Assembly (NCBI GenBank): GCA_003169835.1 | Contig: PNAI01000044.1 | Coordinates: forward strand, 20,447 to 84,446 | Direction of reading: 5' to 3' | Source: Hyphomicrobiales bacterium | GTDB taxonomy: Bacteria; Pseudomonadota; Alphaproteobacteria; Rhizobiales; Xanthobacteraceae | DNA length: 64,000 bases | Shown here: positions 54,839-54,983 of the stretch, piece by piece | Numbering within the stretch: position 1 is the first letter of the stretch | How the letters are laid out: each line of letters opens with the position of its first letter | Position numbers and translations under genes: made by a program | The notes under the pieces: model-generated | What the model was told of the DNA's origin: nothing | What the model saw: the letters and a program-made list of their open reading frames with translations, nothing else | Database searches by the model: none

Positions 54839-54871
54839 GAACAAACGATGAACTATGTTCTTTGTTTGTTC
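54839..54871. promoter_or_regulatory. Double alphaproteobacterial SOS (LexA) box
   Basis: GAAC-AAACGAT-GAAC (54839-54853) and GTTC-TTTGTTT-GTTC (54857-54871), whole block a near-palindrome. Confidence 0.8.
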
Positions 54872-54884
54872 TCAGGAGGAAGCC

Positions 54885-54983
54885 ATGTTCCGTGCTGTTG
54901 TTGAAGAAGCCGCCGCTCTGACTTCGATTGCGTTGTTTCTCGGGATGATCGCCATCTGGGCCAAGGTGATTGCGGTCATGTGA
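54885..54983 (+). CDS. 32-aa SOS-controlled single-pass membrane micropeptide (SidA-like in architecture)
   Basis: MFRAVVEEAAALTSIALFLGMIAIWAKVIAVM*; AGGAGG at 54874-79; directly downstream of two LexA boxes. Confidence 0.75.
   Translation: MFRAVVEEAAALTSIALFLGMIAIWAKVIAVM

What the first reader, a model, noticed from the sequence alone, without database searches (positions are those of the whole stretch)
54839..54983. SOS-controlled 32-aa membrane micropeptide next to dnaE
Seen directly: two back-to-back GTTC-N7-GTTC boxes (54839-54853 inverted, 54857-54871 direct), AGGAGG, then MFRAVVEEAAALTSIALFLGMIAIWAKVIAVM*. Established: GTTCN7GTTC is the alphaproteobacterial LexA site, and Caulobacter SidA is a 29-aa LexA-repressed inner-membrane division inhibitor acting on FtsW/FtsN. 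Inference: this is a SidA-type DNA-damage division inhibitor or a related SOS micropeptide in Rhizobiales. It is too short for standard ORF calling.
Basis: partly seen in the sequence, partly recalled or inferred. Interest (0 to 1): 0.82.

Follow-up and report, generated by a model that had tools for sequence, protein, structure and literature searches.

The report
SidA-like SOS division-inhibitor micropeptide beside dnaE
A 32-amino-acid membrane peptide under DNA-damage control sits beside the main DNA polymerase gene and appears to be the counterpart of Caulobacter's cell-division brake SidA; the same arrangement turns up in many alphaproteobacterial families, so a brake known from one model organism probably operates widely and unannotated.

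Summary
A 33-bp palindromic double LexA-type operator (54839-54871) overlaps a TTGACA/TATGTT promoter, followed by AGGAGG and a 32-aa single-helix ORF (54885-54983), 485 bp upstream of the main dnaE. The operator has no match in 100 shuffles. In the window's family 111 of 144 good genomes encode the peptide. Of 45 distinct loci all have a LexA box, 38 have the identical double operator, and dN/dS is about 0.17. The same box type sits beside lexA and uvrA/ssb in this genome.

Scanning upstream of dnaE in other orders finds the same layout (LexA box, then a 24-48-aa membrane ORF) in 20 of 88 sampled loci; four decoy motifs gave 0. In Caulobacter that peptide is SidA: it passes NCBI's SidA model (NF033228), which the window peptide does not. 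Profile comparison with the Caulobacteraceae peptides beats all 300 column-shuffled controls, without gaps. Two loci where the gene has left dnaE but kept the operator argue against a dnaE leader peptide.

Best reading: a LexA-repressed SidA orthologue that arrests division at FtsW/FtsN after DNA damage. Homology and regulation are well supported; activity is inferred. I found no report of this breadth, in a partial library.

The parts
54830..54859 (+). Sigma-70-type promoter: -35 TTGACA 54830-54835, 18-bp spacer, -10 TATGTT 54854-54859; expected transcription start about 54866
   Evidence: 10 of 12 consensus matches, the only promoter-like site in 54700-55500; TTGAC is visible at the same place in most relatives
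54839..54853 (-). LexA-type box 1 (GTTCN7GTTC on the minus strand), in the -35/-10 spacer
   Evidence: conserved in relatives
54857..54871 (+). LexA-type box 2, overlapping the -10 and the expected start site; forms a 33-bp palindrome with box 1
   Evidence: 38 of 45 distinct loci of the family have the identical double arrangement
54874..54879 (+). Shine-Dalgarno sequence AGGAGG, 5 nt before the ATG
   Evidence: seen in sequence
54885..54983 (+). 32-aa single-helix membrane micropeptide, SidA orthologue by position, regulation and profile
55469..58912 (+). dnaE, replicative DNA polymerase III alpha subunit (conserved downstream neighbour, not part of the micropeptide gene)
   Evidence: TIGR00594, 1195.8 bits, above cut-off

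Best explanation
The ORF is a LexA-repressed small gene, orthologous to Caulobacter sidA. A LexA dimer on each half of the double operator would block the promoter; RecA-stimulated LexA cleavage after DNA damage would release transcription of the micropeptide. The 32-aa product inserts in the inner membrane as one helix and, by homology with SidA, binds the late divisome (FtsW, perhaps FtsN) and holds FtsW/FtsI/FtsN in the inactive state until LexA re-accumulates. Shown here by computation: gene reality, operator and promoter architecture, conservation, link to dnaE, homology to SidA. Inferred: LexA binding, damage induction, membrane insertion, FtsW/FtsN target and division arrest.
For: Purifying selection: dN/dS about 0.17, differences by codon position 0.27/0.10/0.51, shifted-frame controls above 1, 43 of 45 loci exactly 32 aa. 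Conserved in 111 of 144 good genomes of the family, 32 of 42 genera, nearly always just upstream of dnaE. Every one of 45 distinct loci has a LexA box and 38 the same double operator. The same box type lies beside lexA and uvrA/ssb in this genome, and beside an RmuC-like gene whose model match is below cut-off. Weak profile hits in other families of the order fall mostly upstream of dnaE, most with a LexA box. Upstream-of-dnaE scan in other orders: 20 of 88 loci have box plus 24-48-aa membrane ORF, decoys 0; among Caulobacterales-like genomes 22 of 42, decoys 0 to 2. In named Caulobacteraceae 64 of 80 dnaE loci show box plus peptide. Caulobacter peptides pass NF033228 SidA at 59.7 and 57.5 bits, cut-off 35. 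Profile-profile: family versus Caulobacteraceae 20.6, best of 300 column shuffles 17.5; order profile versus Caulobacteraceae 29.8, best shuffle 16.5, ungapped. AlphaFold: one helix, residues 2-31, pLDDT 97.6. SidA biology: PMC4211646, PMC12700426.
Against: The window peptide does not match NF033228 even at E 10, nor do members of other families tested; a Brevundimonas-like peptide from the same locus scores 20.5, below the cut-off of 35. With about 30 residues, homology rests on profile scores together with position and operator, not on sequence alone. The family-only comparison is modest (hhalign probability 64%). The FtsW-binding face is unknown and the window lacks the FVWMM motif of Caulobacter, so the target could differ. 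No expression or phenotype data exist for this organism.
Confidence: 0.78

Rival explanations
1. An SOS-induced membrane-active peptide of the TisB/DinQ sort, which lowers membrane potential and slows growth rather than binding the divisome.
For: Single short hydrophobic helix under LexA-type control; DinQ is such a peptide in E. coli (PMC3567139, abstract).
Against: Homologous to SidA by position, operator and profile. Specific residues are kept over the first 20 members (E8, A9, A10, L12, S14, L17, F18, W25, A26), more than a generic pore-former would seem to need. Antisense RNA was not looked for.
Confidence: 0.1
2. A leader or upstream ORF that regulates dnaE expression, with LexA control of read-through into dnaE.
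For: Lies upstream of dnaE in most relatives; a Sinorhizobium meliloti sORF with ribosome-profiling support lies in the 5'UTR of dnaE1 and its authors suggest uORF functions (PMC10117765). No convincing terminator between the ORF and dnaE.
Against: Distance to dnaE varies from about 160 to 900 bp. In two genomes the gene with its double operator lies elsewhere: L003 (no dnaE within 1.5 kb) and L067 (upstream of a NusG-like ORF). Amino-acid sequence, not only frame, is conserved.
Confidence: 0.06
3. An SOS-regulated membrane peptide homologous to SidA by descent but now acting on another membrane protein (a protease, transporter or cell-wall synthase).
For: Strong divergence between orders: invariant W25 here versus the FVWMM motif in Caulobacteraceae.
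Against: Retained context and retained SOS-type control favour retained function; FtsW and FtsN are expected in all these bacteria (own knowledge, not tested here).
Confidence: 0.06

Closest known systems
SidA, Caulobacter crescentus (CCNA_02004; NCBIfam NF033228)
   Same: About 29-32 aa, one predicted membrane helix, LexA-type operator, immediately upstream of dnaE, same alignment register essentially without gaps.
   Different: Falls outside the NCBIfam SidA model; 28-31% identical to the Caulobacter peptides; palindromic double operator here versus one exact box in most Caulobacter loci scanned; invariant W25 instead of FVWMM; activity untested.
YneA (Bacillus), SosA (Staphylococcus) and other SOS-induced single-pass division inhibitors
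   Same: SOS control, membrane helix, block of division; YneA also acts on FtsW (PMC13396833, title and abstract).
   Different: Larger proteins, other phyla, no shared context; analogous only (own knowledge).
S. meliloti sORF25 in the dnaE1 5'UTR (PMC10117765)
   Same: A small ORF with ribosome-profiling support at the same place in another Rhizobiales genus; probably the same gene.

Membership tests
SidA | Very short single-pass inner-membrane peptide (29 aa in Caulobacter) | tested here: met
   32 aa; one hydrophobic helix 2-31, pLDDT 97.6; actual membrane localisation not shown
SidA | LexA-type operator on the promoter | tested here: met
   Operator on the promoter, box conserved in 45 of 45 distinct relatives; same box type at lexA and uvrA/ssb of this genome; binding itself not testable here
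SidA | Genomic position directly upstream of dnaE | tested here: met
   Window 485 bp upstream; Caulobacter peptides passing NF033228 lie about 140-160 bp before the matched start of dnaE. In C. crescentus, sidA is CCNA_02004 and dnaE CC1926, i.e. CCNA_02003 if the +77 offset seen at lexA and lon holds
SidA | Detectable homology to Caulobacter SidA | tested here: met
   hhalign 20.6 versus shuffle maximum 17.5 (family profile) and 29.8 versus 16.5 (order profile), P 6.5e-5 and 1.2e-7
NCBIfam NF033228 div_inhib_SidA (equivalog as curated) | Score above the curated cut-off of 35 bits | tested here: not met
   No match for the window peptide at E up to 10, so it is not a member of NF033228 as NCBI defines it; a Brevundimonas-like peptide at the same locus also fails (20.5 bits)
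SidA | Blocks division through FtsW/FtsN | not testable with these tools
   Needs overexpression, two-hybrid and suppressor tests
SidA | RecA/LexA-dependent induction by DNA damage | not testable with these tools
   Needs RNA-seq or reporter with mitomycin C

The most novel reading that the evidence does not exclude
SidA is not a Caulobacter peculiarity but one branch of an ancient, dnaE-linked, LexA-controlled division checkpoint that arose early in Alphaproteobacteria and diverged beyond ordinary sequence recognition; LexA-free copies have also been carried elsewhere in some genomes.
Probability: 0.55. Interest if true: 0.75.

Novelty: new member of a known kind. Interest (0 to 1): 0.62.

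Why it matters
How Rhizobiales and most other Alphaproteobacteria stop dividing after DNA damage is, as far as I know, largely unexplored. These peptides have no hit in Pfam, and outside Caulobacteraceae none in NCBIfam; database relatives are at best 'hypothetical protein', because they are about 30 aa long. If the reading holds, one small gene at a predictable place gives a testable division checkpoint in many species, a natural alignment to map how a 30-residue helix stops FtsW, and a way to find the gene by synteny where sequence search fails.

Tried and rejected
Family-profile search of the class found only chance hits outside the order: sequence alone does not reach SidA. The second profile added few; position upstream of dnaE was what worked. 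Pfam and NCBIfam have no model for the window peptide. Phage records: no match; plasmids: chance only. PDB: no match. The 42-aa start at 54855 was rejected. A first guess that family f131 was Caulobacterales was wrong; f79 was recognised from a CtrA search (query recalled from memory) and then by matching peptides in named Caulobacter, Phenylobacterium and Brevundimonas loci. The dnaE-uORF reading was rejected on relocated copies. The SidA discovery paper (10.1101/gad.2038911) is not held. C. crescentus itself was not among the 80 named loci; C. segnis was.

Full report
Observation. The sequence is as described. Two boxes form one 33-bp palindrome, GAACAAACGATGAAC-TAT-GTTCTTTGTTTGTTC (54839-54871), which lies across TTGACA-18-TATGTT (54830-54859). 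AGGAGG (54874-54879) is 5 nt before the ATG at 54885; the ORF ends with TGA at 54983. A lone GTTCN7GTTC is not informative: 2.1 expected in the window, 64 in the genome against 130 for the reversed pattern. The double operator is: no match in 100 shuffles.

It is a gene. In the window's family, the profile finds the peptide in 111 of 144 good genomes and 32 of 42 genera. Over 45 distinct loci dN/dS is about 0.17 (pairs with pS below 0.7; synonymous sites are partly saturated), differences by codon position are 0.27, 0.10, 0.51, reading the same DNA in shifted frames gives pN/pS of 1.1 and 2.8, and 43 of 45 ORFs are exactly 32 aa. Mean identity is 72% in the ORF against 32% and 28% in the flanks (flanks compared without gaps). 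Ten of 32 columns are invariant in the first 20 members. AlphaFold gives one helix, 2-31.

It is under LexA-type control. All 45 loci carry at least one exact box within 150 bp; 38 carry the identical palindrome with the 3-bp centre. In this genome the same box type precedes lexA (TIGR00498, above cut-off) and lies between ssb and uvrA; a further box precedes an RmuC-like gene whose model match is below the cut-off. Sixteen dnaE loci from eight genera of the family without the peptide also lack the box upstream of dnaE: operator and peptide come and go together.

The path to SidA. Sequence search from the window stops at the order. But marginal hits in other families of the order (E 1e-6 to 0.1) fall mostly upstream of dnaE and most have a LexA box, which chance hits would not. 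I therefore located dnaE in the class, took the DNA upstream, and looked for box plus short membrane ORF. Of 88 sampled loci 21 have an exact box within 700 bp and 20 of those are followed by a 24-48-aa membrane ORF; four decoy motifs gave 0 in this set (one gave 2 in the Caulobacterales-like set). A few of the 88 were included because the profile had hit them, so the rate is approximate. The layout appears in families f26, f28, f29, f34, f58, f73, f79, f94, f127, f131, f133, f136 and others, and is absent from many others. Family numbers are those of the genome-search tool, which hides names.

In Caulobacteraceae the ORF is 29-31 aa. A scan of named genomes with a DnaE N-terminus returned Caulobacter, Phenylobacterium and Brevundimonas loci; 64 of 80 have box plus peptide. 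The Caulobacter peptides, C. segnis included, pass NCBIfam NF033228 'cell division inhibitor SidA' at 59.7 and 57.5 bits against a cut-off of 35. So the dnaE-upstream peptide of Caulobacter is SidA. This agrees with C. crescentus locus tags: sidA CCNA_02004 (PMC10769358), dnaE CC1926 (PMC1839093), and a constant offset of 77 between the CC and CCNA numbers at lexA (PMC1839093, PMC11535069) and lon (PMC4551563).

Homology of the two ends. Profile of the window family against Caulobacteraceae: score 20.6, ungapped over 29 columns, above all 300 column shuffles (best 17.5); the order-wide profile gives 29.8 against a best shuffle of 16.5. Intermediates share the register: VEEAAALTSIALFLGMIAIW (window), IRDVLALGSLVTFMSMLTVW, VQDVSAATAVLGFAWMIAMW, ARETLALASVVGFVWMMC (Caulobacter). 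The window peptide itself does not match NF033228, so I call it an orthologue by position, operator and profile, not a member of the curated equivalog.

Independence from dnaE. Distance varies from about 160 to 900 bp. In L003 there is no dnaE within 1.5 kb, and in L067 the gene lies upstream of a NusG-like ORF; both keep the double operator (neighbours judged by eye from their sequence). So it is a stand-alone unit. In S. meliloti a translated sORF lies in the 5'UTR of dnaE1 (PMC10117765); I take it as the probable orthologue, but its sequence was not seen.

Mechanism. [quoted passage not shown]). I infer the same here. Regulation and descent: about 0.9. Division arrest via FtsW/FtsN: about 0.75.

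Known versus new. The kind is known; this is a member outside the curated SidA model, and the breadth of the family, with its fixed place beside dnaE, I have not found described. The library searched is partial, and the original SidA paper is not in it.

Noticed in passing
L330 (G448), L333 (G426), L097 (G022): SidA-like peptides (e.g. MIRLMAKEVAALLSLLAFCGMISVWAMVLS in L330) away from dnaE and without any exact LexA box nearby, in genomes that also have the dnaE-linked type; possibly mobile-element copies that escape SOS control.
   Followed up: partly
L387:4001-4093, L388:4001-4093 (IMG/VR viral contigs): A 31-codon GTG-start SidA-like frame (VLRTIAHEASALVSLALFVGMVAVWAVVIGG) on phage-like contigs, but antisense to a longer ORF; may be chance or a phage-borne division inhibitor.
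   Followed up: partly
G000:C54 about 100.4-101.1 kb (outside the window), L379: lexA lies about 25 kb from dnaE on the same contig; in C. crescentus lexA (CC1902) and dnaE (CC1926) are also close, so lexA, dnaE and sidA may form an old neighbourhood.
   Followed up: no
50193-50915 and 53116-54201: Two copies (one shortened) of a transposase-like gene (weak HTH_23 and DDE_Tnp_IS1 matches for the longer one) just upstream; the nearer copy ends about 630 bp before the promoter, so the flank looks remodelled while operator and peptide stayed intact.
   Followed up: partly
54250-54786: 178-aa minus-strand ORF with an N-terminal hydrophobic stretch and a probable coiled coil, divergent from the micropeptide; no Pfam match above cut-off.
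   Followed up: partly
L139/L140 (f131), L158 (f127), L220-L225 (f79): Several other families also have two LexA-type boxes before the peptide, but with other orientations or spacings than the window's palindrome, as if tight repression of this gene had evolved more than once.
   Followed up: no
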